Assembly (NCBI RefSeq): GCF_010994095.1
Contig: NZ_WJYO01000002.1
Span: 124,001-188,000, forward strand
Origin: Mumia xiangluensis
GTDB taxonomy: Bacteria; Actinomycetota; Actinomycetes; Propionibacteriales; Nocardioidaceae
Direction: 5' to 3'
DNA: 64,000 bases
The stretch's first letter is position 1. Each line of letters begins with the position of its first letter. The notes below the pieces were generated by a model that saw only the letters and a list, made by a program, of their open reading frames with translations, made no database searches and had not been told where the DNA came from. A program made the position numbers and the translations under genes. Below, in pieces: positions 9,402-28,167 of the stretch.

Positions 9402-11042
9402 ATGGGCAGGCGGAACTTGGGGTACCGGGTCCGCATGAAGAAGAGCTGGGCACTCCCGGCGGCGGCGCTCGGCGCCATTGCCGCCCACGACCTCGTGCAG
9501 CGACGGCACGCCATCCTGCGCAACTTCCCCGTGATCGGTCACGTCCGTTTCTGGCTGGAAGCGCTGGGACCTGAGCTGCGGCAGTACATCGTGGCCGGCA
9601 ACGACGAGGAGCGGCCGTTCAGCAGGGACCAGCGCCGTTGGGTGTACGCCTCGGCGAAGCTGCAGAACAACTACTTCGGCTTCGGCACGGACAACGACCT
9701 CGAGCACAGCGACGGGAACGTGATTGTCCACCACCGCACCTTCGGGCGTACCTATCCCACGCATGGTGCCGTCGGGCAGGAAGCCCGCCTTCCCGCTGCG
9801 AAGATCCTCGGCGGTCCACGGGGACGACGTCACGCGTTCCGACCCCAGTCGGTCGTCAACGTCTCCGGGATGAGCTTCGGATCGCTGTCCGGGAACGCGA
9901 TCGAGGCGATCAACCGCGGCGCGGCAGAGGCCGGGTGTCTGCACAACACCGGTGAAGGGGCTGTCTCGCCGTACCACCGCATGGGTGCCGATCTCGTCTT
10001 CCAGATCGGTACGGCCTACTTCGGGTGCCGTGACGACGACGGCCGGTTCAGCCTGAGCACGCTGAAGGAGCTCGTCGACTCGGCGCCGGTGAAAGCGCTC
10101 GAGATCAAGCTCAGCCAGGGTGCTAAACCGGGCCTCGGCGGTGTCCTGCCGGGGCCGAAGGTGTCGAGAGAGATCGCGGAGACCCGCGGCGTGACCGCCG
10201 GTGTCGACTGCCTCAGCCCGTCGCGCCACGCCGCGTTCGACGACGTCGACTCCATGCTCGACTTCGTGGAGCTGCTTGCGACCGAGACCGGGCTGCCGGT
10301 CGGGATCAAGTCCGCGGTCGGCGACATGACGTTCTGGGAGGACCTGGCCGACGCGATGGAGTCCGGTGAGCGGGGGGTCGATTTCGTCACCATCGATGGT
10401 GGGGAGGGCGGGACCGGTGCGTCACCGCTCACCTTCACCGACGCGGTCTCCCTGCCGTTCCGGCTCGGGTTCGCCCGCGTCTACGGCACCTTCGCCCGCC
10501 GTGGCCTCCACGAGAGCGTCACCTTCATCGGCTCCGGCAAGCTCGGCCTCCCCGACAACGCTGTCGTGGCGTTCGCCCTCGGTGCCGACCTGATCAACGT
10601 CGCGCGAGAGGCGATGCTCGCGGTCGGCTGCATCCAGGCGCAGAAGTGCCACACCGGTGAGTGCCCGACCGGCGTCGCCACCCAGAACCCCTGGTTGGCG
10701 CACGGTCTCGACCCGGCGGGAAAGGCGGAGCGAGTCACCAACTACGTGAAGACGCTGCGCCGCGATCTGCTCAAGGTGTCGGAGACGTGCGGCGTCGAGC
10801 ACCCGGCCCTGATCGGACCTCGCAGCGTCGAGATCATCGACACCCTCAGTCGCGGCCAGCTCCTCGACGCCGTCTACGGGTACGAGCCCGGCTGGGGCTT
10901 CCCCTCGGCTCGCGACCGCGACGACATCGTCGCCATCATGACGGCGACCGACGAGGAGGAAGCGGCGACCGTGGGCCCTCCGGAGACGGCCGAGGACGGT
11001 GTTCAGGAAGCAGAGATCGCCGGCGAGGGCGCCGTCGACTAG
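9402..11042 (+). CDS. FMN-binding glutamate-synthase-family protein
   Basis: The 546-residue protein starts at ATG 9402 behind GGAGGT (9390-9395). The N-terminus has a short hydrophobic stretch (KKSWALPAAALGAIAAHDL) that may anchor it. The rest is the GltS FMN domain: MSFGSLSGNAIEAINRGA near 155, GEGAVSPYH, a GIKSAVGDMTFWEDLA strand, TIDGGEGGTGASP near 330 and, near 420, CIQAQKCHTGECPTGVATQ, which carries the cysteines that bind a [3Fe-4S] cluster in glutamate synthase. It lacks the glutaminase and C-terminal GXGXG domains, so it is not a complete GOGAT. Stand-alone members are poorly characterised FMN/Fe-S oxidoreductases. It diverges from sigL. Confidence 0.85.
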   Translation: MGRRNLGYRVRMKKSWALPAAALGAIAAHDLVQRRHAILRNFPVIGHVRFWLEALGPELRQYIVAGNDEERPFSRDQRRWVYASAKLQNNYFGFGTDNDLEHSDGNVIVHHRTFGRTYPTHGAVGQEARLPAAKILGGPRGRRHAFRPQSVVNVSGMSFGSLSGNAIEAINRGAAEAGCLHNTGEGAVSPYHRMGADLVFQIGTAYFGCRDDDGRFSLSTLKELVDSAPVKALEIKLSQGAKPGLGGVLPGPKVSREIAETRGVTAGVDCLSPSRHAAFDDVDSMLDFVELLATETGLPVGIKSAVGDMTFWEDLADAMESGERGVDFVTIDGGEGGTGASPLTFTDAVSLPFRLGFARVYGTFARRGLHESVTFIGSGKLGLPDNAVVAFALGADLINVAREAMLAVGCIQAQKCHTGECPTGVATQNPWLAHGLDPAGKAERVTNYVKTLRRDLLKVSETCGVEHPALIGPRSVEIIDTLSRGQLLDAVYGYEPGWGFPSARDRDDIVAIMTATDEEEAATVGPPETAEDGVQEAEIAGEGAVD

Positions 11043-11075
11043 AGGCGTCGGTGGAGTGTCTCGTCCCGCGACGAG

Positions 11076-11178
11076 TCGATAAAACTCTGCAGGGCGCCGC
11101 GATGCCGACGTGTCACGATGCGGAAATGGACAGGGCGGCCCCATCGCCCCCAGCACCTCCAGTCCTCGTCGGACGCGA
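11076..11178 (+). repeat. 103-bp near-identical repeat, copy 1 (5' end of LuxR gene 1)
   Basis: Begins TCGATAAAACTCTGCAG and runs through the start region of the first LuxR gene. Aligned with 14028-14130 there are four mismatches in 103 positions. Copy spacing is 2952 bp, one gene length. Confidence 0.9.
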
Positions 11179-14027: not shown

Positions 14028-14130
14028 TCGATAAAACTCTGCAGGTCGCCGCGATGCCGTCGTGTCACGATGCGGAAATGGACAGGGCGCCCCCATTGCC
14101 CCCAGCACCTCCAGTCCTCGTCGGACGCGA
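14028..14130 (+). repeat. 103-bp near-identical repeat, copy 2 (5' end of LuxR gene 2)
   Basis: Matches 11076-11178 with four substitutions and no gaps, covering about 26 bp of upstream DNA and the first ~77 bp of coding sequence. Similarity drops sharply just after the VLVGR codons. Confidence 0.9.
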
Positions 14131-16975
14131 ACGCGAACGGGAGCGGCTCGACGCCGTCCTCGACACGGCGGGATCCGGCCGTGCGAGCACGCTGATCGTC
14201 CACGGTGAGGCCGGGGTAGGCAAGACGGCGCTCGTCCGCGCCGCCGCGACCGCCCTTACTGATGGGCTCGCGCTGTACGGCGCCGGGCTCCCGCTGTCGA
14301 ACCTGACGGTGCCGCTGCTCGCGATCCGGTCCCTCGTCCGCGAGCTCCCCGACGGCGTCCCTCCCCTCGACCTGCCGACCGGCCACGACGTCGCCGACGC
14401 GCTGGTCGGCGTCGACGCATGGCTCGACGGGCTCGTGGAGGCGGGCCCGGTCGCGCTCGTGCTCGACGACCTCCACTGGGCTGACCAGACGTCGCTAGAC
14501 GTCCTCCAGTACGTCGTCGCCGGACCCGAGCATCGCCGACTCTCGATCGTGGCCACGGTGCGCTCCGGAGCGGTCACCGACGAGCACCCGCTCACACGCT
14601 GGCTCGCCGACGTACGACGGCTTCCCCGCGTCGACGAGATCACGCTCGCGCCGCTGGACAAGGCGTCGACGCTCGACCAGCTCACGAACCTCCTCGGGGA
14701 GACGCCCCACGGATCGCTGGTCGACGAGGTGTACGCCCGGACCGGCGGAAACCCCTACTTCACCCGCCTCATCGCGGCCGGACTCCCGAGCGATGCTCGG
14801 AGCCTGCCGGACGAGATGCCAGGGTCGCTGCACGACGCGCTCCTGCGGACATCGTCCTCGCTCTCGACGTCCACGCGGCGCGGAACCCAGGTGCTCGCGG
14901 TCGGCGGTCACCCGCTGACCTACGACGAGCTCGACGAGGTCGCTCCCGATCTCGGGTGGGACGGAATCATCCCCGAGGCGGTCGTCGCCGGGGTCGTCGA
15001 CGCGCTCCCCGGTAGACGGTTCTGGATCCACCACCCGCTGCTCGCGGAGACTCTCGAGGCTGAGCTCCCTGCGCGCGAGCGCCGTGCCCGCCACCGTGCG
15101 TTCGCGCAGTGGTGGGAGGCACGACCACCGTCGAGCGAAGTGTCCGCCGAGGCTGCTCGCGTCGCCTACGTGGCCGACCACTACTTCCACGCGCAGGACG
15201 CCGACGAGGCACGGATCTGGGCGTTGCGCGCGGCAGAGGCCGCAGAGTCGGCGGGCATGTGGTCGGAGGCGCAGCGCCTGCTCGAGCGGGAGCTCGCGCA
15301 CGAGCCGGCATCAGGAGCCGCCGTCGCACGGCTCGATCTCCTGCACCGCGCGCGTGCTGCCGCCGAGATGTCGGGCGACCTCGATACCGAGCTTGCGCTG
15401 GTCGATGAGCTGCTGGCTCATGTCGACGCGGAGACCCACCCATTGGCGGTGGCGGATCTCATTGTCCGGCGTGCCAGCGTCCGCCATCTCACGGGTCGCA
15501 CCTACCACGACGGCGACACTCTGGAGCATGCAGAGGCGCTTGCCCGCTCGCAGCCGCCGTCGGCGACGCTCGTTCGGACCCTGGCATGGAGTGCGATGCA
15601 CGGTGGCTGGAAGCCCGACAGGAGCGCCGCACTCAGCGAGGAGGCCGTCGCGATCGCCCACGAGATCGGAGCCGCGCTAGGGATGGCCCTCACGGCGAAG
15701 AGCGTCACCGCCTTCGTCGGTGGCGACGCGACGGCATCGATCGACTGCGCGGCCGAGGCAGTCGCGGCGAGCGTGCGCGAGGGCGACTGGGCGTCGGCGG
15801 CGAAGAGTGCCGAGTACCGGACCTGTGCGAGCGACGGCGCGTGGTCTCCCTGGTTCGCCGAGCAGATCACCCGTGACCGCGAGCACCTCGTCGCGGCGGG
15901 GGCCCCTCAGCACGAGATCGCACTCTTCGACATCCTCGAGGCCGATGCCCGCCTGTGGACCGGCGACTGGGAGAGGTGCGTGGCGATCTTGCGGTCCTGC
16001 ATGGCGACGCGGCTGCAACCGATGTGGGACGCCGGTGGGCGCCTCACGCTCGGGCACCTCGCCGCGCGGCAGGGACGTCCGGTCGAAGCAGCGTCGCACC
16101 TGGCGCGAGCCGAAGAGCTCGTCATCGACACGCAGAGCTTCTACGAGCTCGAGTTCGACGCACTCCGCGCGATCGTCGCGCTGGAGGCCGGTGATCCGGA
16201 CGCGGCGTACGCTCACGCCGTCGCGGGGATGGACTTCGACGGCCTCCCGCCGAACATGGTCGAGTACCTGCTGCCGCTCGCAGTGCGGGCACTCGCCGAC
16301 GGCATCGAGCGACGCCGAGCTGCCGGTGAGGACGTCGACGGCCTCCTCCGTAAGGTGACCGAGCTCGCCGCGACCCACCGGCACGTCGTTCTCGACATCG
16401 GGGAGATGCAGCCCTGGGTAGTGGCCGAGACGGAAGCGATCCAGGTCCTCTATCGCGCCGAGCTGGCGCGGGCCACGGCGAGCCCGGACGCGTGCCTGCT
16501 GTGGCGGGTCGCGACGATCCGCGCACGTCGAGCATGCCTGCGCTGGGACGAGGCCTACGCCGGCTGGCGGTGGGCCGAGGCGCTTCTGCGCTCCGGACAG
16601 CGTGGTGGCGAGACCACGGCCGTTCTGCGCGACGCGCACCGTCTCGCGCTGCGGCTCGCAGCCGTGCCGATCATCGAGGCTCTCGAGCGCCTCGCGGTGG
16701 GCGCGCACATCCCCCTCACCGAGGTGATGGGCCACCCAGACGGCGCGCCCGCCGAGGCCCCCTTCCCCGGGCTGACCGCCCGCGAACGGGAGATTGTGAC
16801 CTACCTCGTCGCAGGACGGACCTACGCCGAGATCGCAGACGCGCTCGTCATCAGCGAGAAGACGGTGAGCTCGCACGTCTCGAACATCCTCCGCAAGACA
16901 GGGGCCCGGAACCGCATCGAGCTCGCAGTCCTGGCGGAGAAGCGGCGGACGCCGGGTGCGGCGCCCGCTCGCTGA
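14054..16975 (+). CDS. LAL-type LuxR-family transcriptional regulator (copy 2)
   Basis: The 973-residue paralogue of the preceding gene has the same order: Walker A GEAGVGKTALV, Walker B VALVLDDLHW, a long helical repeat region, and a C-terminal HTH (LTAREREIVTYLVAGRTYAE, ISEKTVSSHVSNILRKTG) followed by a short Arg/Pro/Ala tail. Over the ATPase domain the two proteins appear roughly 60-65% identical by eye, yet their first ~26 codons and upstream DNA are almost the same. This is a tandem duplication. ATG 14054 matches the start used for copy 1; ATG 14078 is the alternative. The pair may respond to related signals or form heteromers. Confidence 0.88.
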   Translation: MPSCHDAEMDRAPPLPPAPPVLVGRERERERLDAVLDTAGSGRASTLIVHGEAGVGKTALVRAAATALTDGLALYGAGLPLSNLTVPLLAIRSLVRELPDGVPPLDLPTGHDVADALVGVDAWLDGLVEAGPVALVLDDLHWADQTSLDVLQYVVAGPEHRRLSIVATVRSGAVTDEHPLTRWLADVRRLPRVDEITLAPLDKASTLDQLTNLLGETPHGSLVDEVYARTGGNPYFTRLIAAGLPSDARSLPDEMPGSLHDALLRTSSSLSTSTRRGTQVLAVGGHPLTYDELDEVAPDLGWDGIIPEAVVAGVVDALPGRRFWIHHPLLAETLEAELPARERRARHRAFAQWWEARPPSSEVSAEAARVAYVADHYFHAQDADEARIWALRAAEAAESAGMWSEAQRLLERELAHEPASGAAVARLDLLHRARAAAEMSGDLDTELALVDELLAHVDAETHPLAVADLIVRRASVRHLTGRTYHDGDTLEHAEALARSQPPSATLVRTLAWSAMHGGWKPDRSAALSEEAVAIAHEIGAALGMALTAKSVTAFVGGDATASIDCAAEAVAASVREGDWASAAKSAEYRTCASDGAWSPWFAEQITRDREHLVAAGAPQHEIALFDILEADARLWTGDWERCVAILRSCMATRLQPMWDAGGRLTLGHLAARQGRPVEAASHLARAEELVIDTQSFYELEFDALRAIVALEAGDPDAAYAHAVAGMDFDGLPPNMVEYLLPLAVRALADGIERRRAAGEDVDGLLRKVTELAATHRHVVLDIGEMQPWVVAETEAIQVLYRAELARATASPDACLLWRVATIRARRACLRWDEAYAGWRWAEALLRSGQRGGETTAVLRDAHRLALRLAAVPIIEALERLAVGAHIPLTEVMGHPDGAPAEAPFPGLTAREREIVTYLVAGRTYAEIADALVISEKTVSSHVSNILRKTGARNRIELAVLAEKRRTPGAAPAR

Positions 16976-17774: not shown

Positions 17775-18536
17775 TCAGTGGGTGTGGCCGTCCAGCGGCA
17801 CCGCCGGTGACCCTGGTCCGGCGCCGGCCGAGACGCCGTACGAGAGAGCGAGCGCGAGCAGACCGAGCCCGACGATCACGAGAGCGCCCTCGGCCCTCGG
17901 GACGTCTCCGCCGCGGCGACGCTCGAGGAGCCCCAGCACCGTTGCGGTCGCCATGACGATCAGGCCGTGGCCGATCATCACCGCGGTCATGAGCACCCAG
18001 CACGTCGCGACGCACCGCCGCGCGGTCGCGACGCCGTACAGGGCGCAGTCACGGTCGGCCCGCCACCCTCGCGGAGACAGCGGCATCGTCATGGCGCACT
18101 GGCGGACGAGGCGACGCCGTCCCGGCGAGAGGTACGCGACGACGGCGACCCCGAAGCCGACCACGATCGCCGGACGCCACCCGATCGCCGACACGAGCAG
18201 ACCGCCCGCGACGATCGAGGCGGTCGCGACCAGGATCCACACGCCGAGGTAGCCGGCGAGGTACGCCAGCGGCGCCCGGTAGCGCCGCTGCCACAGGCTG
18301 TTGTGCGCGACGTGCGCGACCTGCGGCAGGACGAACGGCACCATCATCGCCACCGTCATCACCGCCGCGTGGCTCAGCGCGTGCGACGGAGGATGCACCT
18401 GCGCCGAGCCGAGGAGGTGCCCCGGCTCGACGAGCGCTGCCACGAGCAGCGCCACCCAGGCGCCCCCCGCGAGCGCCACCGCGAACCACTCGGGGTGGTA
18501 CCAGTGCGTCCGGACGACGAACGACGTGCTGGTCAT
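17775..18536 (-). CDS. DUF2182 family predicted metal-binding membrane protein
   Basis: The 253-residue integral membrane protein has about six hydrophobic helices. It carries the DUF2182 hallmark, a Met-rich helix after a His-containing loop (HALSHAAVMTVAMMVPFVLP near 50-70), then LAYLAGYLGVW. Two cysteines lie in RRCVATCWVLMTAVMIGHGL, and the tail ends DGHTH. Met/His/Cys-rich helices suggest copper handling, although the biochemistry of the family is, to my knowledge, not settled. ATG 18536 overlaps the tyrosinase stop (ATGA), so it is translationally coupled to a copper enzyme, which supports a copper-supply role. Confidence 0.78.
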   Translation of the reverse strand: MTSTSFVVRTHWYHPEWFAVALAGGAWVALLVAALVEPGHLLGSAQVHPPSHALSHAAVMTVAMMVPFVLPQVAHVAHNSLWQRRYRAPLAYLAGYLGVWILVATASIVAGGLLVSAIGWRPAIVVGFGVAVVAYLSPGRRRLVRQCAMTMPLSPRGWRADRDCALYGVATARRCVATCWVLMTAVMIGHGLIVMATATVLGLLERRRGGDVPRAEGALVIVGLGLLALALSYGVSAGAGPGSPAVPLDGHTH

Positions 18537-20677
18537 GCGTAGAAGAGGCTCACGCGCCCGACCGAGATGTCCCCCTCCGCCGTCCCGCCTGACGGGTCAG
18601 GCAGCGGGGTGAACGCCACGGTGAGCTTCTTCGGCTCCCACTGGCCGGCGGCAGCGAGGGCCTTGACGACCTTGGTGATCTCGAACGTCGCGTTCTTGCC
18701 GCTCCCGCTGTGGGTGTCGCTCTTGCGGGACGCCTCGATCACGCCGAACATCGGCAGCTGCCCGATCTCGCGGTCGGGGAACTCGGTTGCCTTGGCGCCG
18801 GCCGGCACGTTGATGTGGACGAGCACCGGGCCGGCACTGAGCTTGGTCGCCGTGATGTTCTCCAGCCGGAGGAACACGCGAGACCCCGGTGGCACGGTCC
18901 CCGACTCGTCGACGAGCCGGGCGAGCGGACCGCGGGGAGCACTGACGTCGATCGGCACCGAGGAGGGTCCGGACCGGATCGGCACCGGCCCCTTCGACGC
19001 GCCGACGAGCTCGGGTGGGCGTGTCTCCTCCTCGCCGATCTCCTCGGTCTCGCCGGTGGGTTCGCCGAAGGCCTCGCGCGCGCCACGCTCGGGCATGTCC
19101 GAATAGCGGTACCCCAGCGGTGGCCGGCGGGGGTCGATGACCTGCTCGGTCCTCAGCGTCGTCGTGGTCCCCCCTGCTCCGAACACCCAGTGGGCGTCGC
19201 GCCACTGCTTCTCGCGCGGGTTGTTCCGACGAGGCTGCCGCAACCAGACCTCCCACAGGCGGTCGATGTTGGCGTGGTGCAACCAGAACACCGGGTCCTG
19301 CGCCGCCGTCTCGAAGAGCGACATCAGGCCCAGCGGATTCCGCCCACCGACCGCCACGTGCACGAGACCGTGCGGGACCTCTTCCAGTGCGCCCCCACCG
19401 GGCCCGTTCTCGTGGGTCCCGACGGGCGCCGTCCGCCCCCCGAACGCGGGCAGGAAGCGGTCGGTGAACGAGGTCTGGTCCATCGCCCTGCTCACCGCGA
19501 CGTCCCGTGGCGCCATCGGGTCGCCCCGCTTGATCGCGTCGCTGCGCAGTGCGACCGCGAGCGGGTTGTCGACGTTGTCGGGCGTGCGCGCGGCGCGGAA
19601 CGCCGGCGGCAGCTTCGCGACGTCGGGCCGGCTCGCGTCGCTGTAGTTCCAGAACGGCAGTGCCCAGCCGCTCGGTCCACCGAGACGCACGATCTCGTCG
19701 CGGACGATCCGTTCGAAGTGGTGCAGGTAGATCCGGTGCCAGGGCAGGAAGTGCCAGCTCTCGTGCTCGCACGCGTTCCAGACCGCGCCCGAGGGCCACG
19801 AGCCCCGCGCGATGAAGGTCCCGTGAGCCTCAGCGAGGTGACGCCAGCCTCGGGGGTCGGCGAACGCCCCGGTGTCCCGGGCCTTCATCGCCGTGACCGC
19901 GCGGGCGTACCAGAGGATCGTCGGGTGCCAGACGTTCGTGGCGCTGAGCGTCCACACGTCCTCGCGGACCCGTACGGCGGGGGCCGGCGTGGGCGTGGGG
20001 GTCGGTGTGGGCGTCGGGGTCGGTGTGGGCGTCGGCGTCGGCGTCGGGGTCGGGGTCGGCGTCGGCGTCGGGGTCGGAGTCACCGCGAGCTTCTCCAGCT
20101 CCGGCCACGTCTTCGGACCGATCACCCCGTCGCGCACCAGTCCGCGGCAGGCCTGGAACATCTTGGTCGCGAGCTCCGTGCCTTGTCCGAAGCGGCAGTC
20201 GACGACCAGCGGGTCCTGCCCGAGGGCCTTGAGCTGCGGCTGCAACGAGGCGATGTACTGCCGCGTCCCCTGACTGGTGTCGGTGCACGACGGCGTGCTG
20301 GTGCGCCACGCCTCGAGGAAGCGGTTCAGCAGGTGCTGGGCGTAGCCCACCGCCGGGTTGCGCGAGCGCTTCGCGTCGGTGCTGCGGTGAAGCAGCGGCC
20401 GCGGACCGGTCGGCGCTGCCGGCGGGCCCTCACCCGGTGCGCACCGCGATGGACCCCAGGTCTCGCCCTCCGACCCCGTCTCGGGAACGGCCTCGGGCCA
20501 CGCCTCCGGCCACGCTTCCGGAACGGTCAGCGGTTGCTCCGTCTGGACGGGGTGCTCGTCGAACCACTCCCCCGTGACCGTGTCCAGATCCTCGGAGGCG
20601 AAGGGGCTCTCGTCGAACCACTCCCGCGTCCCGACGTCGGCCTCCGTCGTCCGCCACGGCGACTCGTCCTCGCGCAT
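18533..20677 (-). CDS. Multidomain tyrosinase with peptidoglycan-binding-like domain and C-terminal shield-like domain
   Basis: The 714-residue protein starts at ATG 20677 behind GGAGGTGC. Residues 1-90 are acidic and disordered with repeated E-x-P-F/W motifs (ESPW 5-8, ESPF 23-26). Residues about 95-195 resemble a peptidoglycan-binding fold (AVGYAQHLLNRFLEAW, then GQGTELATKMFQ, DGVIGPKTWPELEKL). A (Thr-Pro)16 linker spans 200-231. The type-3 copper domain follows: CuA H285 (or H280), H305, H314 in HESWHFLPWHR; CuB H436, H440 in PHGLVH and H467/H468 in FWLHHANIDRLW. Residues about 575-714 form a beta-rich domain like the C-terminal shield of polyphenol oxidases. No Sec, Tat or lipobox signal is present. 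It would oxidise phenols to quinones, probably from a latent form. Confidence 0.88.
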   Translation of the reverse strand: MREDESPWRTTEADVGTREWFDESPFASEDLDTVTGEWFDEHPVQTEQPLTVPEAWPEAWPEAVPETGSEGETWGPSRCAPGEGPPAAPTGPRPLLHRSTDAKRSRNPAVGYAQHLLNRFLEAWRTSTPSCTDTSQGTRQYIASLQPQLKALGQDPLVVDCRFGQGTELATKMFQACRGLVRDGVIGPKTWPELEKLAVTPTPTPTPTPTPTPTPTPTPTPTPTPTPTPTPAPAVRVREDVWTLSATNVWHPTILWYARAVTAMKARDTGAFADPRGWRHLAEAHGTFIARGSWPSGAVWNACEHESWHFLPWHRIYLHHFERIVRDEIVRLGGPSGWALPFWNYSDASRPDVAKLPPAFRAARTPDNVDNPLAVALRSDAIKRGDPMAPRDVAVSRAMDQTSFTDRFLPAFGGRTAPVGTHENGPGGGALEEVPHGLVHVAVGGRNPLGLMSLFETAAQDPVFWLHHANIDRLWEVWLRQPRRNNPREKQWRDAHWVFGAGGTTTTLRTEQVIDPRRPPLGYRYSDMPERGAREAFGEPTGETEEIGEEETRPPELVGASKGPVPIRSGPSSVPIDVSAPRGPLARLVDESGTVPPGSRVFLRLENITATKLSAGPVLVHINVPAGAKATEFPDREIGQLPMFGVIEASRKSDTHSGSGKNATFEITKVVKALAAAGQWEPKKLTVAFTPLPDPSGGTAEGDISVGRVSLFYA
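19985..20080. repeat. Hexanucleotide repeat encoding (Thr-Pro)16
   Basis: Sixteen consecutive 6-bp units (cggcgt, gggcgt, cggggt and variants on the + strand) encode Thr-Pro on the minus strand. It is a flexible linker in the tyrosinase and likely prone to length change. Confidence 0.9.
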
Positions 20678-20689
20678 GGTGCACCTCCG

Positions 20690-21811
20690 TCATCGCTTGG
20701 TCAGCGGTCGTGGAGCCGCGACGACCTGGACCGGTGTCGGACGCTCCTTGAGGTTGCGTCCCGACGCCGCAGCCCACTCGGTGATCACGCGTCGCACCTC
20801 CGTGCCGAGCGGCACCGCACCCGGTGGCAGCGGCGGGACGGTCGGCGGGGTGGTGCTCTGGTAGAGCAGCCACGCGCGCCCGCTGTCGGTGACCCAGCCC
20901 GCCTCGAGGGCGCGCAGCACCAACGACAGCTCCTGCGCCATCGCGAAGAAGGAGTTGGCGCGTGAGTGGGGTGGCATGCCGACACGCTCACCGATCACCC
21001 GAAGCCGGTCTGCAGCGCTGGTCGCCTGGGCCCGGAGGTCGACGACGAGGGGCGTGTTGGAGCCCAGGGTCAGCTCCACCCATCCCATCGCGGTCGTCGC
21101 AGCGAGCTCCTCGCGGCTCAGCAGCGCGTTCTGACGCCGCGAGCGCAGCATGAACCCGAGCTGCTCCGCGAGCCGGTAGATCCGGTCGTCGTCCGTGGTG
21201 TTCCCGGCGACGAGGTTCCGGACGTTCTCGATCGCCCGCCACAGCTCGTACAACAGCTCCTCGAGCAGGGCCACGAACGTGCGGTTGGAGGCCTCAGCCT
21301 TGTCGTACGGGTACGGCGCGTTGGCGTCCGTGCCGTGGGCGAGGTCCATCCCGAACATCCGGTAGTACGCGTTGCGACGGACGGCCTCGGCGTCGGGGCG
21401 GACCCCGCTTGTGGACAGCCAGGCGGCGACCGGGTTGTGGGCTCCGAACAGCAGCGTCTCGGTCGTGTCGAGCCACCGCTGCGTCGCCACCGACGGGATC
21501 CCGAGCCCTTCGCCACCCCGGAACGCCCGTACGACCCTCGCCAGGATCTGCGCGGCCCGGGTGTTCTCGATCGCGTACGCATAGATCAGGTGGTCCCAGG
21601 CCGGCTGGGACGGCATCGGCACCCCGCTGAAGGCGCCGTCGTTGAACAGCGCCACGCGTGCCGGGCCGGCCGGCGGCGGGTTCGGTGCCCACGGGTTGGC
21701 CGCGTCGAGCACCTGCTCCATCCGCCAGATCAGGTCCAGCGGGTCGGCCGTGATGACCTGTGCCTCGGCGACGGCACCGCCGCCGAGCTGTTGGACGAGC
21801 TGCGTGATCAT
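20690..21811 (-). CDS. Unknown protein of the tyrosinase module (373 aa)
   Basis: A soluble, mostly alpha-helical 373-residue protein without signal or membrane helices. N-terminal MITQLVQQLGGG leads to helices rich in Ala/Leu/Arg (AIENTRAAQILARVVRAF; RTFVALLEELLYELWRAIEN). The C-terminal ~50 residues are proline-rich (PPTVPPLPPGAVPLG) with a basic tail. No catalytic motif was recognised. ATG 21811 overlaps the 139-aa gene's stop (ATGA), and the gene ends 12 bp before the tyrosinase start, so it is a firm member of the operon. Confidence 0.7.
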   Translation of the reverse strand: MITQLVQQLGGGAVAEAQVITADPLDLIWRMEQVLDAANPWAPNPPPAGPARVALFNDGAFSGVPMPSQPAWDHLIYAYAIENTRAAQILARVVRAFRGGEGLGIPSVATQRWLDTTETLLFGAHNPVAAWLSTSGVRPDAEAVRRNAYYRMFGMDLAHGTDANAPYPYDKAEASNRTFVALLEELLYELWRAIENVRNLVAGNTTDDDRIYRLAEQLGFMLRSRRQNALLSREELAATTAMGWVELTLGSNTPLVVDLRAQATSAADRLRVIGERVGMPPHSRANSFFAMAQELSLVLRALEAGWVTDSGRAWLLYQSTTPPTVPPLPPGAVPLGTEVRRVITEWAAASGRNLKERPTPVQVVAAPRPLTKR

Positions 21812-22227
21812 GCCACCGACTCCTCGTAGTAGACGCCGTCGACGACCGGCCGGGCCTGCCCGATGAAGGAGACCGGCTCCTCGTACGCCGTCGCCAGCTG
21901 CTGGAAGTTGGAGTCGCGGTCCCCGCCGAGCGCGTTCCGGATGAGGGCAACCGCCTCCGCGACCCCGGGTTCGAGCTCGAGGGCGGTCGAGGGTGGGACG
22001 ATGCTGCGCAGCGGCCCCATCACCTCCGCGATCTCCGCGAGGCCGATCGCGAGGCCGTCGAGCCCGGCGATGCCGCCGAGCGTCGTCCAGACCTTCGCGA
22101 ACTCCTCCGACGACGTCTGCTGCATCGCCTCGATGACCTCGAGGAGCTCCTCCGTACGCTCCCCGATCGTCTCCATCGACGACGCGAGGGACTTCATCGT
22201 CAGGTTTCCGCTCGTCTTCTTGGCCAC
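21808..22227 (-). CDS. Unknown small helical protein of the tyrosinase module (139 aa)
   Basis: GTG 22227 is chosen because GGAGG (22236-22240) is eight bases upstream; an earlier GTG at 22236 would overlap that site. The N-terminal half is amphipathic helix with coiled-coil character (LASSMETIGERTEELLEVIEAM). A Gly/Ile/Leu-rich stretch (LGGIAGLDGLAIGLAEIAEV) could form a small hydrophobic hairpin. The end holds YEEPVSFIGQARPVVDGVYY. No known family. It lies between the metallopeptidase and the 373-aa gene in one operon. Confidence 0.65.
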   Translation of the reverse strand: MAKKTSGNLTMKSLASSMETIGERTEELLEVIEAMQQTSSEEFAKVWTTLGGIAGLDGLAIGLAEIAEVMGPLRSIVPPSTALELEPGVAEAVALIRNALGGDRDSNFQQLATAYEEPVSFIGQARPVVDGVYYEESVA

Positions 22228-22252
22228 GACTGCCACCTCCGCTAGGCGCCGC

Positions 22253-23503
22253 TCAGGCGGCGACGCTCCGTTGACCGGTCATCCACGTCCGTGCTCGCGA
22301 GATCCACTCGCCGGCTCGCTCCGGGTTCTCCGCCTCGCGCAGCCCGGCGAGCGCGATGAGGCGGATCCCTTCCGTCCCGCGCCAGTGCGGCGACGTCCAC
22401 AACGACGGCCCCGCGCTCCGCTCGAGCTCGGCGAGCGCGGTCGGCGACACCTTCTGGGGATCGACCAGAGCCGTGACAGGGCGGTCGCGGAAGCCCGGGA
22501 CCGGGGTGCCGAGACAGGTGGCCGCGATCGCCGGCATCCGCTGGTGCGACCGGAGCAGCAGCGGCACGGTCGTCGCCTCGGCGCGGCTCGGCGGGTACGA
22601 CGTCAGGATCGCGCGCTCCAGCCGGTCCCACGGACCAGGTCCGTAGGCGTGGCGGCACATCGCGCAGCCCAGGAGCGTCCGCAGCCAGCCGATCGGGTGA
22701 GGGTCGCCGAGCGGCCAGCGGAAGAGTGTCCGTTCGTCACCGACGACGTCGTGCAGAGCCGCCACCGATGCGAAGCCGGTGAGCACGAACGCGTACACGT
22801 CCGCTGCGATCTCGCTGCTCCACGGCTGCCACATCGCGCGCAGCGCCGGGTCGTCGGCGAGCGTCGTGCCGAGGGCGTCCGACAGCGCAGAGTTCCAGCC
22901 GGAGAGGTGCGCGACCTGGTGGCCGGTCTCGTGGAAGAGCGAGGTGGGCCGGTACAGGTTGTGCCGGACGATCTTGACCGCCGCCACCGGGTTGACCGCC
23001 CCTGGAGCCCACAGCCGGATCCCGACCCGGAGGATGCTGGCGCCCAGACCTTCCCCCAGGTAGGTCAGGACCGGCGGGACAGGGAGGCCCAGCGGGCGCA
23101 GGACCTGGTCGATGCTCTGGTAGGCGACGGAGTCGAGGAACTGCAGCGCCGTACGGAGGTGGGCGCTGGTGCGGGTGTTGACGGCCTGACCGAAGAAGTC
23201 GAGCGTCGTCTCCACCTGGACGTAGCGACGGCGGAACTGCTGCACCGCCGCGTGCGCGTCCGCCAGCGCAGCCGGGTCCAGGCGGCTCGCGCGGACCGCC
23301 GCCGTCGTGGTGCGCCCGTTCTCGAGGAGCTGCTCGACCGTTCGCGCCAGCTGTCTGCGCACCGGCACGCCGATCGACTGCTCGAGCGACTCCCACGCGT
23401 GACGCGACGCGAACTCCTCGGCGTCGATGAAGCACTGCGCAGCACCGACCCAGTGCCCGAGCTGGCGCTGGAGCTCCTCGGCGATCAGGCGGTGCTCGTT
23501 CAC
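22253..23503 (-). CDS. Putative zinc metallopeptidase (gluzincin-like, HETGH) of the tyrosinase module
   Basis: The 416-residue protein has an HExxH zinc site at H191-E192-T-G-H195 (SLFHETGHQVAHLSG) and, 36 residues after H195, SSEIAADVYAF, in which E231 and D235 fit the ExxxD third-ligand motif of gluzincins. Before the site are about 180 mostly helical residues, after it another 180 with a CAMCRHAYG cysteine pair. No signal peptide or membrane helix is seen. GTG 23503 overlaps the stop of the upstream 803-aa gene (GTGA). Family assignment rests on the motif alone. A role in clipping the tyrosinase C-terminal domain is attractive but inferred. Confidence 0.68.
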   Translation of the reverse strand: MNEHRLIAEELQRQLGHWVGAAQCFIDAEEFASRHAWESLEQSIGVPVRRQLARTVEQLLENGRTTTAAVRASRLDPAALADAHAAVQQFRRRYVQVETTLDFFGQAVNTRTSAHLRTALQFLDSVAYQSIDQVLRPLGLPVPPVLTYLGEGLGASILRVGIRLWAPGAVNPVAAVKIVRHNLYRPTSLFHETGHQVAHLSGWNSALSDALGTTLADDPALRAMWQPWSSEIAADVYAFVLTGFASVAALHDVVGDERTLFRWPLGDPHPIGWLRTLLGCAMCRHAYGPGPWDRLERAILTSYPPSRAEATTVPLLLRSHQRMPAIAATCLGTPVPGFRDRPVTALVDPQKVSPTALAELERSAGPSLWTSPHWRGTEGIRLIALAGLREAENPERAGEWISRARTWMTGQRSVAA

Positions 23504-25911
23504 GGCTTGGACCTCCCCGGTGTGACCGTGACGGTCACCGGCGCCGGCGCCGTCGTCGGCGGGGCCGCAGGAGCGGTCGTCGCAGGAGCGGTCGTCGCCG
23601 GTACGGCGGTGGCGGGCGCGGGCGCGTCGTCGTCCTCTGCCTCGGCGGAAGGTCCGGCCACTCCCCTGACGTGCACGTTCACCGTCACGCCGTTGGCCGG
23701 GTCCTGCGCGGCCCGGACGAACTCGTGGCCGCGGGTGCGGACGAACTCCGCCAGTGCCTTCGCGACGCTCGACCGCAGCCGGCGCCGGTTCCGCGACGGG
23801 GGACGCCGCCGTCCGCGTCCACGTCCGACCGGGGCACGCCGACGGCGACGACGCGGCCCTGGCATCGCCGCGAAGGCCGCCCGCAGCAGCGCCCTGAGCA
23901 AGGTCGTGCCGCCGGGTCCTGCGGACACCGACGCGGCGAGCCGCTGGGCGTCGGCCTCGGAGAAGTACAGCGACAGGCGCACCTCCCGGCGGTTCTCGTC
24001 GGTCCGGACCCGGCCGTCGCTCGGCTGCGCCACCTCTCCAGCGGACGCTGTGGTCGTCGCGGCAGGGGTCTCGACCTGCCCGATCGGCTCCAGGTAGAAG
24101 AACCGCTGCCCGACGGAGATGCGGTGGCGAGAGGCGAGGAACTGCGCGGGGGCGTCGACGCCGAGGCGCGGCTCACGCAGCAGCACTCCCGCGTTCGCGA
24201 CGGTGAGCGGATGCAGCTGACCGTGCGCCCCGCGCGGGAACGCTGCGCCTCCGATCTTCTCGAGGCGTGCCAGGCGGACCAGCGTGGTCCCAGGCCCGGA
24301 CTCGTACACGTGCACGCGGAACCGGCCCGGCAGCGCGATGCCGGCAGCCCGGAGCGCGGCGTCCAGCGTGGTTCCGCCGAACGTCGTCACGGTCGCAGCG
24401 ATCGCTGCGGTCACCTCGATCTCCGGGACCCGCGAGAACTTCTTGTACGCGATGGCGGTGCGGGCGCGTCGTACGACGAACGACCCGCCGAGCGACGGCG
24501 CGATCTGCAGGTCGGGCCGGACGAGCTGGGCGGGGAAGTTGGCGGCGACCGCCTCCTCGAAGGCCTCGGTCAGCGCAACCTGCAGCAGGTCCTCGTCCTC
24601 GAAGAACTCGCCCGGCTGCTCCGACAGCCTGCGGACGGTGTCCTCGACGGTCGCTGCGAGGGCGGCCGGTGCGGCCTCCTGCTCGAGCTGACCGGGGCGC
24701 CCCTGCTCGAGGCCGATGACCCTCAGACCGACGTCGACGATCGCCGACGAGAGCGGCCCCGAGAGCTTGGGCCCGACCCACTGACCGATGAGCTTGGCGA
24801 GGAACCCCGACAGGAACCCCACGACCTTCGGCCGACCCACGATGCGGATCCCGAGCCGCAGGGCCGGGAGGATCGCGGGGATGAACTGGTCGACCGCCGG
24901 TGTCAGGTCCTCCCCCTCCTGCGCCGAGGCGATCCGGTCGATGAACAGGCTCCGCGCCTCGGCGAGCGCCTCGAGCTCGTCGGAGGAGGGCGGCGCTGCG
25001 CCCCGCTCCTGGTCGTGGCCGAAGCTCTCGCCCTGCTCCAGCGCCTCGCCGCCGAGCACAGACTCGGCCAGCGCGGCGTCGAAGGACTCGGCGAGCGTCT
25101 CCGGATCTCCCGCAGCGACGGGCGTCGGCGCGAAGGACGTGACCAGGAACTCCTCCTCGGCCTCGCCCTCGACCAGCTCCTCGGTCTCCTTCTGGCCGAG
25201 GCCGAAGCGCCGCGCGAGCGCACGTGCGGGCTCGTGCAATGCAGCGGGCAGCTTGTTGATCGCGATCGCCAGCACGCGCTGGAGCAGCGGCCGGACTAGC
25301 GCCTTGAGCTTGTTGAGGATCGGGCCGAGGATCGGGAGCGCAGCCTTGGCGATCTTGCCGGCGGTGCTGACCACGGTCTTGACGACGCTCTTGGCCTTCT
25401 TGATGAGGCCGCCGATGAACTCCTCACCCGCGACGCTCACCCCGGCGGACCCGATCTCGAAGCGGTCGAGGAGCTCGTCGAGCTGGTCCGGCGCCATCCC
25501 CTCGAGGTCGAGGCTCTGCACGTGGTCGGCGAACCGTTGCACGCACCGCTCCGCCTCCGAACCGATCGGAGCCAGGTGGGCGTCGGCGAGCTGGCGGCGC
25601 TGCTCGGCGAGCTGCATCGGCTGCTCCCCTGCCAGCCCGGTCTCGGCGGCTTCCGCGGTCTCCGCGATCAGCTCGGCCAGCGCCTCGTCGAACTGCTCGT
25701 CCCGGATGCTCTCGAACGCCTCCGCGACGATCTCGCCGACCTCTCCCTCTCCGTCGAAGTCCTCGCTGAGCAGCTCCGCGAACGGAGTTGTCACCTCGGT
25801 CCACGGCAGGAACCCGAGCGTCGCCGGCGGCGTCTCCGTGCTGACGCTCTGCTCGGAGAACGGCGTCTCGACCTCGAGCGCGCCCCCTGCGGTTTCGTCG
25901 ATCACGGTCAT
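23500..25911 (-). CDS. Large acidic/amphipathic multidomain protein, first gene of the tyrosinase module (803 aa)
   Basis: ATG 25911 follows GGGAGGGCGCG. The N-terminus is acidic and unstructured with two P-F motifs (ETPFSE 15-20, TTPFAE 41-46). Residues about 168-222 form a long basic amphipathic, nearly hydrophobic helix region (FIGGLIKKAKSVVKTVVSTA, then AALPILGPILNKLKALV). A second such region lies near 340-395 (FLSGFLAKLIGQWVGPKLSG). A beta-rich middle and an Arg-rich patch (PRRRRRRAPVGRGRGRRR) follow, with a Thr/Pro/Ala-rich tail. No Sec signal is present. The layout (acidic ExPF head plus GG-[FL]-KK helices) resembles uncharacterised large proteins of soil bacteria; membrane insertion is plausible but unproven. 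Confidence 0.65.
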   Translation of the reverse strand: MTVIDETAGGALEVETPFSEQSVSTETPPATLGFLPWTEVTTPFAELLSEDFDGEGEVGEIVAEAFESIRDEQFDEALAELIAETAEAAETGLAGEQPMQLAEQRRQLADAHLAPIGSEAERCVQRFADHVQSLDLEGMAPDQLDELLDRFEIGSAGVSVAGEEFIGGLIKKAKSVVKTVVSTAGKIAKAALPILGPILNKLKALVRPLLQRVLAIAINKLPAALHEPARALARRFGLGQKETEELVEGEAEEEFLVTSFAPTPVAAGDPETLAESFDAALAESVLGGEALEQGESFGHDQERGAAPPSSDELEALAEARSLFIDRIASAQEGEDLTPAVDQFIPAILPALRLGIRIVGRPKVVGFLSGFLAKLIGQWVGPKLSGPLSSAIVDVGLRVIGLEQGRPGQLEQEAAPAALAATVEDTVRRLSEQPGEFFEDEDLLQVALTEAFEEAVAANFPAQLVRPDLQIAPSLGGSFVVRRARTAIAYKKFSRVPEIEVTAAIAATVTTFGGTTLDAALRAAGIALPGRFRVHVYESGPGTTLVRLARLEKIGGAAFPRGAHGQLHPLTVANAGVLLREPRLGVDAPAQFLASRHRISVGQRFFYLEPIGQVETPAATTTASAGEVAQPSDGRVRTDENRREVRLSLYFSEADAQRLAASVSAGPGGTTLLRALLRAAFAAMPGPRRRRRRAPVGRGRGRRRPPSRNRRRLRSSVAKALAEFVRTRGHEFVRAAQDPANGVTVNVHVRGVAGPSAEAEDDDAPAPATAVPATTAPATTAPAAPPTTAPAPVTVTVTPGRSKP

Positions 25912-26247
25912 CGCGCCCTCCCGGAGCTCGTCCCTTCCGGGCACCCAGGTGCCCGACACGCACCAGCCTGCAGGCCACCCGTACCCGTCACGGACTCGTG
26001 GATGCCCGCGCGACGACCCGTCCCGTGCCCCGTGGCGGCACCCCCGCGTCCGTCTCGCGTCCCCGCACCGTCGCCCTCGCGTCCCGACTGGCCAGGTCGG
26101 TCGACAATGCCGGGAGGCGCGACCTCAGAACACACCTATGCTCGTGAGGTCGAAGACATGTCGCGCAGACCCGCCCGCGCCCGTCTCCGCCGTCGCGTGC
26201 CCCCCTCCGCCTCGTCAGGACGTGCCGCGGACCTAGGAGCACAGACC
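25912..26247. promoter_or_regulatory. 336-bp divergent regulatory region between the tyrosinase module and the SARP-like gene
   Basis: This is the only gene-free stretch above 300 bp. It holds a phased direct-repeat array (26045-26084) and a possible -10 (TATGCT, 26137-26142) for the plus strand. An alternative ATG at 26158 for the regulator lies inside it. I see no stable terminator hairpin. Confidence 0.55.
26045..26084. promoter_or_regulatory. Helically phased direct repeats CGCGTCC, candidate SARP operator
   Basis: CGCGTCC occurs at 26045-26051, 26056-26062 and 26078-26084. Starts are 11 and 22 bp apart, and a degenerate copy (ACCGTCG) fills the 26067-26073 slot, giving four repeats on one face of the helix. 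SARP regulators such as ActII-ORF4 and DnrI bind direct heptamers with 11- or 22-bp phasing. Confidence 0.5.
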
Positions 26248-26934
26248 GTGGCCAGCTCGAACGGATCACGTCGCGTCGGCGTCCTCGGAGGGCTCGGGAC
26301 CCGGCCCTCGGAGCGGTTGTCGGGCGCGGGGCGCCGCCTGCTCGCCTATCTCGCCGTGAAGGGGCCCCGCGCGAACCGGTTCCTCGCCGGCACCGACCTG
26401 TGGCCGGAGGTCTCCGAGGCGCGTGCGCGAGCCAACCTCCGCCGCGCACTCTGGCAGCTCCCCCGTCGATGGGTGCAGCCCGACGGCCCCGACCTCCAGC
26501 TCGATGCCTCGGTCGACCTGCTCGATGCGCGTCGCGTCGCCGACCACGCACTGGCCGCCGACCCGGTCGCTGCCGACGAGGTGGAGCTGCTGAAGCACGA
26601 CCTGCTCCCCGGCTGGTACGAACCGTGGGTCCTGGACGAGCAGGACCAGTTCCACCTGCACCGGATCCAGGCCCTCGAGGCGGTCTGCCGGACGGCATCG
26701 GACGCCGGGGCGTACCCGCTGGCCACCGGGGCCGGGCTGGCGGCCGTCTGCGCAGAGCCGCTGCGCGAGTCCGCCGTGACGGCACTGGTCCAGGCGTTGG
26801 TGCTCGAGGGGAACCGCGTGGAGGCTGCCCGGCGCTACCGCGCGTACGCTCAGCGGTTGCGCCACGAGATCGGCGCCGCGCCCGGGGACGACCTCGTCGC
26901 GCTCGTCCGCCCGTACCTCCGCCGGCGGGGGTGA
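26248..26934 (+). CDS. SARP-like regulator (winged helix plus bacterial transcriptional activator domain)
   Basis: The 228-residue protein has a short N-terminal OmpR-like winged-helix segment (VGVLGGLGTRPSERLSG, then RRLLAYLAVKG and LWPEVSEARARANLRRALWQ) and a C-terminal BTAD helical domain (LLPGWYEPWVLDEQDQFHLH, then LREHEI-like helices ending VALVRPYLRRRG). It lacks the ATPase and TPR domains of AfsR, so it matches small SARPs. GTG 26248 is preferred: AGGAG at 26235-26239 is eight bases upstream. An ATG at 26158 is possible but adds an Arg-rich non-conserved leader. It diverges from the tyrosinase operon and is its likely activator. Confidence 0.78.
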   Translation: MASSNGSRRVGVLGGLGTRPSERLSGAGRRLLAYLAVKGPRANRFLAGTDLWPEVSEARARANLRRALWQLPRRWVQPDGPDLQLDASVDLLDARRVADHALAADPVAADEVELLKHDLLPGWYEPWVLDEQDQFHLHRIQALEAVCRTASDAGAYPLATGAGLAAVCAEPLRESAVTALVQALVLEGNRVEAARRYRAYAQRLRHEIGAAPGDDLVALVRPYLRRRG

Positions 26935-26973: not shown

Positions 26974-28167
26974 ATGGCCACACGTCGAGCGACCGCTGCC
27001 GGTGCCGCCCTCCTCTGCTCCGCGCTCATGCTTCCGGACGGTGCCGCCGGAGCGAGCGCCTCCGTCACCGCCGCCACCGCGACCGCCCCCGCCGAGCGTG
27101 CCGCCCCCGCCAGCGTCGTACGGGCCGCCCCGCTGCGGTCCACCACCGTCCTCACCGACCTCGACCACCCGTGGGACATCGCATTCATCTCGTCGTCGCA
27201 GTTCCTCTTCACCCAGCGCGACCGCCGTACGATCTCGCTCGGCACCGTGACCGGCGGGAAGCGCGTGGTCGGGCGCGCGGCCGGCATCTGGGCCGGTGGC
27301 GAGACCGGGTTGATGGCGCTCGAGCTCGCCCCGGACTTCGCACGGACCCGAAACTTCTACACCTGCCACGGCTACCGCTCCGGTGCCACGAAGGACGTCC
27401 GCGTCGCCCGCTGGCGGCTCAACGCCGCGCGGACGAAGGCGCGCCTCGTCAAGACGATCGTGCGCGGACTGCCCTCGACCAGCGGACGCCACGGCGGCTG
27501 CGCGCTCGTGTTCGGCAGCAGCGGTGCACTCTTCATCGGCACCGGCGACGCAGCCGTCGGCCGCAACCCGCAGCGCCTGCGCTCCGGCGGCGGCAAGGTC
27601 CTCCGCGTGAACGCCCGTACCGGACGCGGCCTGAAGGCGAACCCGTACGCGGGCTCCCGGTACGCGATGAAGCGGCGCGTGTACACCTACGGGCACCGCA
27701 ACGTGCAAGGTCTCGCTCGGCGCGGCAGCCAGATCTGGTCGGTCGAGCAGGGCTCGTACCGCGATGACGAGGTCAACCTGCTGCGTCGCACGGGCAACTA
27801 CGGCTGGAACCCGGTGCCCGGCTACAACGAGTCGGTGCCGATGACCGACCACGGGCTCCCCGGCAAGCAGCGGGCGGCCCGCTGGCGCTCGGGCGACTCG
27901 ACGCTCGCGACGACCGGCGCAGCCTGGCTGCGCGGCTCGATCTGGGGCAAGCGGTCCGGCCGCGTGCTCGCGGTCACCACGTTGAAGGCCGAGCACCTCC
28001 GTCTGCTCCGGTTCACCAAGAAGGGACGGCTGACCGGACAGTCGGTGCAGCTGCAGGGCCGGTACGGCCGGCTGCGCGCGGTCACGGTCGCACCCGGTGG
28101 CGCGCTGTACGTGTCGACGTCCAACGGCGGCGGCACCGACCGCATCGTGCGGGTGCTGCCCGGCTGA
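26974..28167 (+). CDS. PQQ-dependent sugar dehydrogenase-like secreted protein (GSDH family)
   Basis: The 397-residue protein has an N-terminal signal (ATAAGAALLCSALMLPDGAA) and then a six-bladed beta-propeller of the glucose/sorbosone dehydrogenase type: LDHPWDIAFISSSQFLFTQR, GGETGLMALELAPDF, HGGCALVFGSSGALFIGTGD, YGHRNVQGLA, VEQGSYRDDEVNLL, NYGWNPVPGYNES, and TGAAWLRGSIW. The conserved H in GRHGG and R in YGHRNVQG are in the places that bind PQQ and substrate in homologues. It would oxidise an extracytoplasmic sugar using PQQ; many actinobacterial members lack a known substrate. The start is supported by a -10 six bases upstream. Confidence 0.83.
   Translation: MATRRATAAGAALLCSALMLPDGAAGASASVTAATATAPAERAAPASVVRAAPLRSTTVLTDLDHPWDIAFISSSQFLFTQRDRRTISLGTVTGGKRVVGRAAGIWAGGETGLMALELAPDFARTRNFYTCHGYRSGATKDVRVARWRLNAARTKARLVKTIVRGLPSTSGRHGGCALVFGSSGALFIGTGDAAVGRNPQRLRSGGGKVLRVNARTGRGLKANPYAGSRYAMKRRVYTYGHRNVQGLARRGSQIWSVEQGSYRDDEVNLLRRTGNYGWNPVPGYNESVPMTDHGLPGKQRAARWRSGDSTLATTGAAWLRGSIWGKRSGRVLAVTTLKAEHLRLLRFTKKGRLTGQSVQLQGRYGRLRAVTVAPGGALYVSTSNGGGTDRIVRVLPG

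What the first reader, a model, noticed from the sequence alone, without database searches (positions are those of the whole stretch)
26045..26084. SARP-type operator: CGCGTCC repeats at 11- and 22-bp phasing beside a SARP-like gene
Three exact heptamers start at 26045, 26056 and 26078 with a degenerate one at 26067, all on one helix face. SARPs bind such arrays. The array lies between the SARP-like gene and the tyrosinase module, predicting direct control of one or both.
Basis: partly seen in the sequence, partly recalled or inferred. Interest (0 to 1): 0.66.

Follow-up and report, generated by a model that had tools for sequence, protein, structure and literature searches.

The report
Self-control switch of a tyrosinase gene cluster
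A row of four DNA repeats, one per helix turn, sits between a small activator gene and a tyrosinase gene cluster and is kept in related bacteria, so it is very probably the docking site of that activator; the kind of site is known, this one is new.

Summary
The repeats are real and not chance. CGCGTCC starts at 26045, 26056 and 26078; one base further on, all four units carry CGTC (26047, 26058, 26069, 26080), so the "degenerate" unit is a proper one. CGTC-N7 x4 occurs once in the 4.62-Mb genome. The neighbouring gene (GTG 26248) is a compact SARP. All five Mumia genomes found with the locus keep four CGTNS cores at -89 to -91, -78 to -80, -67/68 and -56/57 from a conserved -10-like TATGCT. 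Gordonia, another order, has the same divergent module and an 11-bp CGTCC array in an otherwise unalignable intergenic. Of 67 more distant SARP homologues, 26 have an 11-bp-phased heptamer triple upstream of their gene, against 0-3 at nine other spacings and 8 at 12 bp, and 0-2 in control stretches. Best reading: an upstream, PimR-like SARP operator, most likely autoregulatory, probably also serving the divergent tyrosinase operon. The classical 8-bp-from--10 rule is not met directly (gap 52 bp, 8 plus 44). Binding and target are inferred, not shown.

The parts
26045..26084 (+). four-unit direct-repeat array, 11-bp period: CGCGTCC 26045, CGCGTCC 26056, ACCGTCG 26067 (CCGTCGC in register 26068), CGCGTCC 26078
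26102..26106 (+). CGACA, present in 4 of 5 Mumia; possible extra weak unit in phase (unit position 26100, 22 bp after unit 4)
   Evidence: seen; not tested
26137..26142 (+). TATGCT, -10-like element of the SARP gene, the only TANNNT hexamer common to all five Mumia intergenics
26135..26157 (+). strongly conserved intergenic block (19 of 23 columns invariant in five species)
26248..26934 (+). compact SARP regulator, 228 aa (OmpR-type DNA-binding region plus BTAD), GTG start, AGGAG at 26235-26239
26974..28167 (+). glucose/sorbosone dehydrogenase family protein, 40 bp after the SARP gene; kept in 4 of 4 other Mumia loci, no match in Gordonia L009
23500..25911 (-). 803-aa protein without Pfam family above cut-off, first gene of the divergent module, ATG at 25911
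22253..23503 (-). 416-aa module protein with an HETGH (HExxH) motif, no Pfam family
21808..22236 (-). 142-aa module protein, no Pfam family above its cut-off
20690..21811 (-). 373-aa module protein, no Pfam family; in the same 5 of 6 genomes of the genus as the SARP
18533..20677 (-). tyrosinase with peptidoglycan-binding domain and DUF7868
17775..18536 (-). PpoB2-family copper chaperone

Best explanation
The array is the operator of the compact SARP encoded at 26248-26934. SARP monomers would bind the CGTCC-type units side by side on one helix face, one unit per 11-bp turn, and recruit RNA polymerase to the poor promoter around TATGCT (26137), where no -35 is recognisable in the window; this is an upstream (PimR-like, class I) version of SARP activation, with the array 44 bp, four 11-bp units, upstream of the classical place. 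The first consequence is positive autoregulation; since the same 336-bp region must also carry the promoter of the divergent tyrosinase module, the array probably switches that operon too. Shown: array, phasing, conservation, regulator family, linkage. Inferred: binding, activation, and which promoter responds.
For: (1) Not chance, unique in the genome as a four-unit array. (2) 5 of 5 Mumia genomes with the locus keep four CGTNS cores within 1 bp of the same distances from the -10, at most 1 of 5000 shuffles each; slid from -110 to +30, no comb beyond the 1-bp tolerance reaches more than 2 of 5. In a four-species alignment the CGTCC cores of units 1 and 2 are 10 of 10 invariant, spacers 2 of 8, flanks 25 of 95. 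(3) Gordonia: 56% identical SARP, same module, units CTCGTTC/TGCGTCC/TGCGTCC/GGCGTCG at 11 bp score 22 of 28 with the window's motif, 0 of 1000 shuffles, followed in phase by ACCGTTG; the intergenic as a whole aligns no better than five shuffles (43.5% against 42.6-47.8%). (4) 67 homologues: a motif-free test finds triples of at least 17/21 at 11 bp in 26 of 67, against 0-3 at nine other spacings and 8 at 12 bp; at 11 bp, stretches inside, after and far upstream of the gene give 0/67, 2/65, 0/63, 2/67. In the largest clade the motif SCGTCAC at 11 bp reaches 22/28 in 16 of 30 on the sense strand, 1 of 30 antisense, 0 at 9, 10, 12, 13 bp. (5) Profile match to AfsR over the whole SARP region, E 2e-19. 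(6) The unit follows the SARP more than the species: Gordonia shares Mumia's GCGTCC unit and the stretch ARANLRRA in the presumed recognition helix, whereas many same-family homologues have GCGTCAC. (7) The 11/22-bp rule for SARP sites is in print (PMC10936776, passages; 11-bp units and PimR, PMC5930380, passages).
Against: No binding or expression data. The 3' unit is 52 bp, not 8 bp, before the -10 and does not overlap a -35. With strict 11-bp spacing G004 and G003 score no better than shuffles (597 and 693 of 1000); their retention rests on the CGTNS comb, chosen after looking, and in the alignment G004's units 1 and 2 are those at -102 and -91, so the homology of single units is unsure. 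With the family motif SCGTCAC and 11-bp spacing, G002, G005, G004 and G003 reach only 66, 72, 44 and 277 of 1000. That motif was read off the same 67 loci; the held-out rest gives 7 of 37 sense hits, and at score 21 there 8 of 37 lie antisense against 3 sense. Homologues and species are related, so counts are not independent. 41 of 67 homologues do not reach the triple threshold. Array-to--10 distance differs in Gordonia (48 or 37 bp after the last unit). The DNA-binding half is poorly modelled and Pfam does not name it in the window protein.
Confidence: 0.74

Rival explanations
1. The array is a site for another OmpR-fold regulator that also uses 11-bp direct repeats, above all PhoP (PHO box), encoded elsewhere in the genome.
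For: PHO boxes are 11-nt direct repeat units with seven conserved bases, GTTCACC in S. coelicolor (PMC4415409 passages); the homologues' unit CGTCACC resembles it. One PHO-like triple on the minus strand of the window intergenic scores 16/21, 5 of 300 shuffles.
Against: The best plus-strand triple, which lies in the array, scores 14/21 as a PHO box, 163 of 300 shuffles; all ten strand tests in the five relatives are unremarkable (53 to 297 of 300). The unit sequence follows the SARP clade across orders more than the species, and SARP and module occur in the same 5 of 6 genomes of the genus.
Confidence: 0.1
2. The array serves only the divergent tyrosinase module, not the SARP gene, as PimR controls pimM and not itself.
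For: PimR binds a three-heptamer array between divergent genes and is not autoregulated (PMC3367932 passages). SARP and module are linked in all five Mumia loci, Gordonia and two Nocardioidaceae relatives.
Against: The only conserved -10-like hexamer points to the SARP gene; no TANNNT on the minus strand in six intergenics, although such hexamers are rare at 74% GC. Homologues outside this module also carry arrays. Spacing from the last unit to the SARP -10 is kept to 1 bp in five Mumia.
Confidence: 0.15
3. The repeats are a chance or slippage product of C-rich intergenic DNA.
For: Composition is C-rich (149 of 335 bases); CGTNC-like words are scattered through the region.
Against: Shuffles, unique occurrence, conservation and Gordonia; spacers are not repeated (GTCT, CCGC, CCCT), and in 28 homologue arrays spacers 1 and 2 agree at only 38 of 112 positions.
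Confidence: 0.03

Closest known systems
PimR operator between pimR and pimM (Streptomyces natalensis)
   Same: three heptamers with 4-bp spacers in a divergent intergenic, upstream of and not overlapping the -35; SARP encoded next to it (PMC3367932, PMC5930380 passages)
   Different: heptamer CGGCAAG; large SARP-LAL; target is a PAS-LuxR regulator gene; not autoregulated. Here CGTCC-type units, a 228-aa SARP, and probable own-gene control
AfsR box of afsS and classical small-SARP promoters (ActII-ORF4, DnrI)
   Same: direct repeats spaced 11 or 22 bp, SARP domain protein (PMC10936776 passages)
   Different: classical 3' repeat lies 8 bp from the -10; here 52 bp, which is 8 plus 44
PHO box (PhoP)
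   Same: 11-nt direct repeat units with 7 conserved bases (PMC4415409 passages)
   Different: GTTCACC unit not met by the window array

Membership tests
SARP-type operator (general) | heptameric direct repeats spaced 11 or 22 bp on one strand | tested here: met
SARP-type operator (general) | bound by a SARP | not testable with these tools
   only linkage and conservation
Classical SARP promoter (ActII-ORF4/DnrI/AfsR layout) | 3' repeat 8 bp from the -10, array overlapping the -35 | tested here: not met
   gap 52 bp to TATGCT; homologues L020, L080, L095 do place a unit 9 bp before a YATGG that I read as a -10
Upstream, PimR-like SARP operator | array upstream of the -35 in a divergent intergenic beside the SARP gene | tested here: met
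   resting on TATGCT being the -10, which is not mapped; layout in PMC5930380 and PMC3367932
SARP protein family | C-terminal BTAD | tested here: met
   PF03704 E 1.4e-12, 32 of 32 aligned homologues
[quoted passage not shown]
   by sequence profile: 32 homologues' profile, positions 5-238 of 244, aligns with AfsR SARP, E 2e-19; Pfam Trans_reg_C not found in the window protein and only in 1 of 32 members at E 0.087; VIA rows cover mostly residues 86-228, so the fold of this half is inconclusive
PHO box | GTTCACC-type units at 11 bp | tested here: not met
   array 14/21, 163 of 300 shuffles

The most novel reading that the evidence does not exclude
Compact SARPs of this kind form a subfamily that autoregulates through own-promoter arrays whose 7-bp unit diverges by clade with the recognition helix, and here the SARP runs not an antibiotic cluster but a module with exchangeable peptidoglycan-binding cargo enzymes (tyrosinase in Mumia and Gordonia, an M23/PLD protein in a Nocardioidaceae relative).
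Probability: 0.35. Interest if true: 0.62.

Novelty: new member of a known kind. Interest (0 to 1): 0.45.

Why it matters
It names a regulator, its probable operator and the gene module it controls in a group where my open-access searches found next to nothing on SARPs (Mumia with SARP: one paper with one mention of each, listing only; Nocardioides with SARP: two papers, one mention each, listing only; Gordonia with SARP and direct repeat: none). The homologue set gives natural variation of unit against recognition helix, from which a SARP DNA-recognition code could be tested, and each array predicts a binding site at base resolution.

Tried and rejected
Alignment alone suggested that two Mumia species had lost the array; one search had three loci in the wrong orientation, and the alignment put unlike units side by side. 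Anchoring on the -10 changed this view.

A consensus sigma-70 promoter or terminator in the window intergenic: none found; with a relaxed scan G003 has GCGGCA-N17-TATGCT and Gordonia TTGCGG-N17-GATACT, the other four nothing. Gordonia has two overlapping terminator-like stems at 8833-8850, 2 found against 0.2 expected, not followed. A structured 5' leader: folds worse than shuffles (z 2.28, 200 of 200 shuffles at least as stable). A 53-bp distance from unit to YATGG at 9 of 22 sites in the largest clade: with a shorter range, shows four of them (L020, L083, L084, L092); not resolved and not used. The two distant relatives with a different cargo (L052, L053) have no CGCGTCC array; with the family motif L052 reaches 2 of 100, and L053 has CGAGGAC/CGTTGAC/CGTTGAC at 11 bp, 1 of 200. 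The family motif is at or below 1 of 100 shuffles in 32 of 67 homologues, but it was read off these same loci, so I rely on the motif-free test. In the control stretches other spacings do rise (12 bp: 15 of 65 after +370; 9 bp: 10 of 67 far upstream), probably codon periodicity. No plasmid record has a relative. phmmer with the single protein found no solved structure. VIA-align rows cover mostly the BTAD half, where EmbR and AfsR (Z 11.8, 11.3) tie with TPR proteins.

Row handling: one search listed 73 matches, 5 of them in this genus. Of the other 68, 67 were used; one (G243) was left out because its contig has 147 bases upstream. L033 and L034 have identical proteins and both count among the 67; searches used 29 of the 30 clade rows (L034 left out). 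A3 used 32 sequences: of 54 homologues with a complete reading frame of at most 330 aa I printed every second one (27) and aligned 26 of them, plus window, L008, L009, L010, L011, L013.

Full report
What is there. The window lies in a 4.62-Mb genome. Between a minus-strand gene starting at 25911 and a plus-strand gene starting at GTG 26248 lies a 336-bp intergenic. Three exact CGCGTCC heptamers start at 26045, 26056 and 26078, and ACCGTCG at 26067. Shifted by one base, all four units contain CGTC, 11 bp apart.

Chance. The heptamer is not enriched as such (49 seen, 81 expected in the window). The phasing is the unusual part: 5 of 20,000 order-1 simulations of the intergenic give any heptamer triple at multiples of 11; four units score 25 of 28 with 0 of 1000 shuffles. 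In the genome the three-unit pattern and CGTC-N7 x4 each occur once, here, with controls 0. The close pair CGCGTCC-N4-CGCGTCC also occurs once, but its reversed control does too, and the looser pair GCGTCC-N5-GCGTCC occurs 12 times against 1 for the reversed pattern, so pairs alone say little.

Regulator. The gene has a BTAD domain. A profile of 32 homologues matches the AfsR SARP region at profile positions 5-238 of 244, E 2e-19. The AlphaFold model (mean pLDDT 75) has AfsR and EmbR as its six best Foldseek hits, but with low TM-scores (0.42-0.47 by query length); confidence in roughly the first 88 residues is low to middling, and the second aligner covered mostly residues 86-228. The start at GTG 26248 is the one shared by five species.

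Conservation. SARP and module protein 20690-21811 are in the same 5 of 6 genomes. Relative to TATGCT, CGTNS cores stand at -90, -79, -68, -57 (window); -90, -79, -68, -56 (G002); -89, -78, -67, -56 (G005); -91, -80, -68, -56 (G004 and G003, with a further one at -102); other CGTNS words lie among them. All four within 1 bp: 0, 1, 0, 0, 0 of 5000 shuffles (window, G002, G005, G004, G003). The comb was defined from the window after looking, and these species are related, so the figures overstate the case. With the window's heptamer and strict 11-bp spacing the results are 0, 4, 0, 597 and 693 of 1000. Column counts: units 1-2 cores 10 of 10 invariant in four species, flanks 25 of 95; with the fifth species 8 of 10 against 12 of 95; in that alignment G004's first two units are those at -102 and -91, so they are not independent of unit choice.

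Gordonia. Gordonia sp. ABSL1-1 (L009; Mycobacteriales), the only one of 59 genomes searched in its genus with a match at E 1e-30, has the six module proteins in the same order, divergent from the SARP. Its intergenic carries CTCGTTC, TGCGTCC, TGCGTCC, GGCGTCG, ACCGTTG at 11-bp steps. Scored with the window's own heptamer the first four reach 22 of 28, 0 of 1000 shuffles, while overall identity is that of shuffled DNA.

Wider homologues. 63 of 341 genomes of the family have a SARP match at 1e-20. Upstream of 67 homologues outside the genus, self-similar heptamer triples of at least 17/21 occur at 11-bp spacing in 26, at 12 bp in 8, at nine other spacings in 0-3; at 11 bp, four other stretches of the same loci give 0/67, 2/65, 0/63, 2/67. 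24 of 67 are at or below 2 of 200 shuffles. Phased units in the largest clade read SCGTCAC with weakly conserved spacers (100 units). Arrays are found in several clades of the tree, often in sister rows. A second clade has GCGTGAC-type units 195-200 bp upstream. I did not annotate the homologues' neighbours beyond looking for divergent reading frames; tblastn with module proteins was run only on the loci.

Mechanism. In print, SARP sites are direct repeats spaced 11 or 22 bp, the 3' repeat 8 bp from the -10 (PMC10936776, passages); PimR uses three heptamers upstream of the -35, in agreement with class I activation (PMC5930380, PMC3367932, passages). Here the last unit ends 52 bp before TATGCT, which is 8 plus four 11-bp units. 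No -35 is visible in the window. I therefore infer upstream activation of the SARP gene. Array sense orientation in the largest clade (16 of 30 against 1 of 30) and the fixed distance to the SARP -10 favour autoregulation; the divergent module is a likely second target, by linkage only. Outside that clade antisense arrays are as common or commoner (8 against 3 of 37), so orientation is not a general rule.

Rivals. A PHO box is not supported by the array (163 of 300 shuffles), though one minus-strand PHO-like triple in the window (5 of 300) was seen and is not repeated in relatives. Control of the module alone, as in PimR, is not excluded. Chance or slippage is unlikely.

Novelty. Operator kind and regulator family are known. 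New here, as far as I can see: this operator, its module, and the recurrence of own-promoter arrays in compact SARPs. My literature searches (open-access library only) returned listings; of five papers (PMC5930380, PMC10972967, PMC10936776, PMC4415409, PMC3367932) I saw passages, none in full, so absence from print is not established.

Noticed in passing
window 17775-25911 (-), L009 504-8680, L052, L053: A module of unnamed proteins (803, 416, 142, 373 aa) with a SARP and a cargo enzyme carrying a peptidoglycan-binding domain: tyrosinase in Mumia and Gordonia, an M23 peptidase/PLD protein in L053; no tyrosinase match in L052. It looks like a system with exchangeable cargo.
   Followed up: partly
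window 23500-25911 (-), L009 6236-8680: The 803-aa protein has two N-terminal TPFSE/TPFAE motifs, similar in Gordonia; the tyrosinase has a similar SPFAS (window) or SPFAD (Gordonia) stretch near its N-terminus.
   Followed up: no
window 22253-23503 (-): The 416-aa protein carries HETGH (HExxH) in a stretch shared with Gordonia, possibly a metallopeptidase without a Pfam model.
   Followed up: no
window 10661-14011 and 14054-16975 (+): Two large LuxR-type ATPase regulators beside the module; relatives also lie beside it in L056 and, cut off, L054; none seen within L055, L057 and L009.
   Followed up: partly
L019, L024, L028, L066, upstream of the SARP homologue: Exact heptamer triples at 12-bp spacing (CGTGGCC, CGTGGTC, TGTGGGC, CGTGCCC), a second repeat class of unknown meaning.
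   Followed up: no
window 26135-26157: CCTATGCTCGTGAGGTCGAAGAC is strongly conserved and extends well past the -10; in the window and G002 an SD-like GAGG and an ATG follow (TTG in G004 and G003), perhaps a short leader reading frame.
   Followed up: partly
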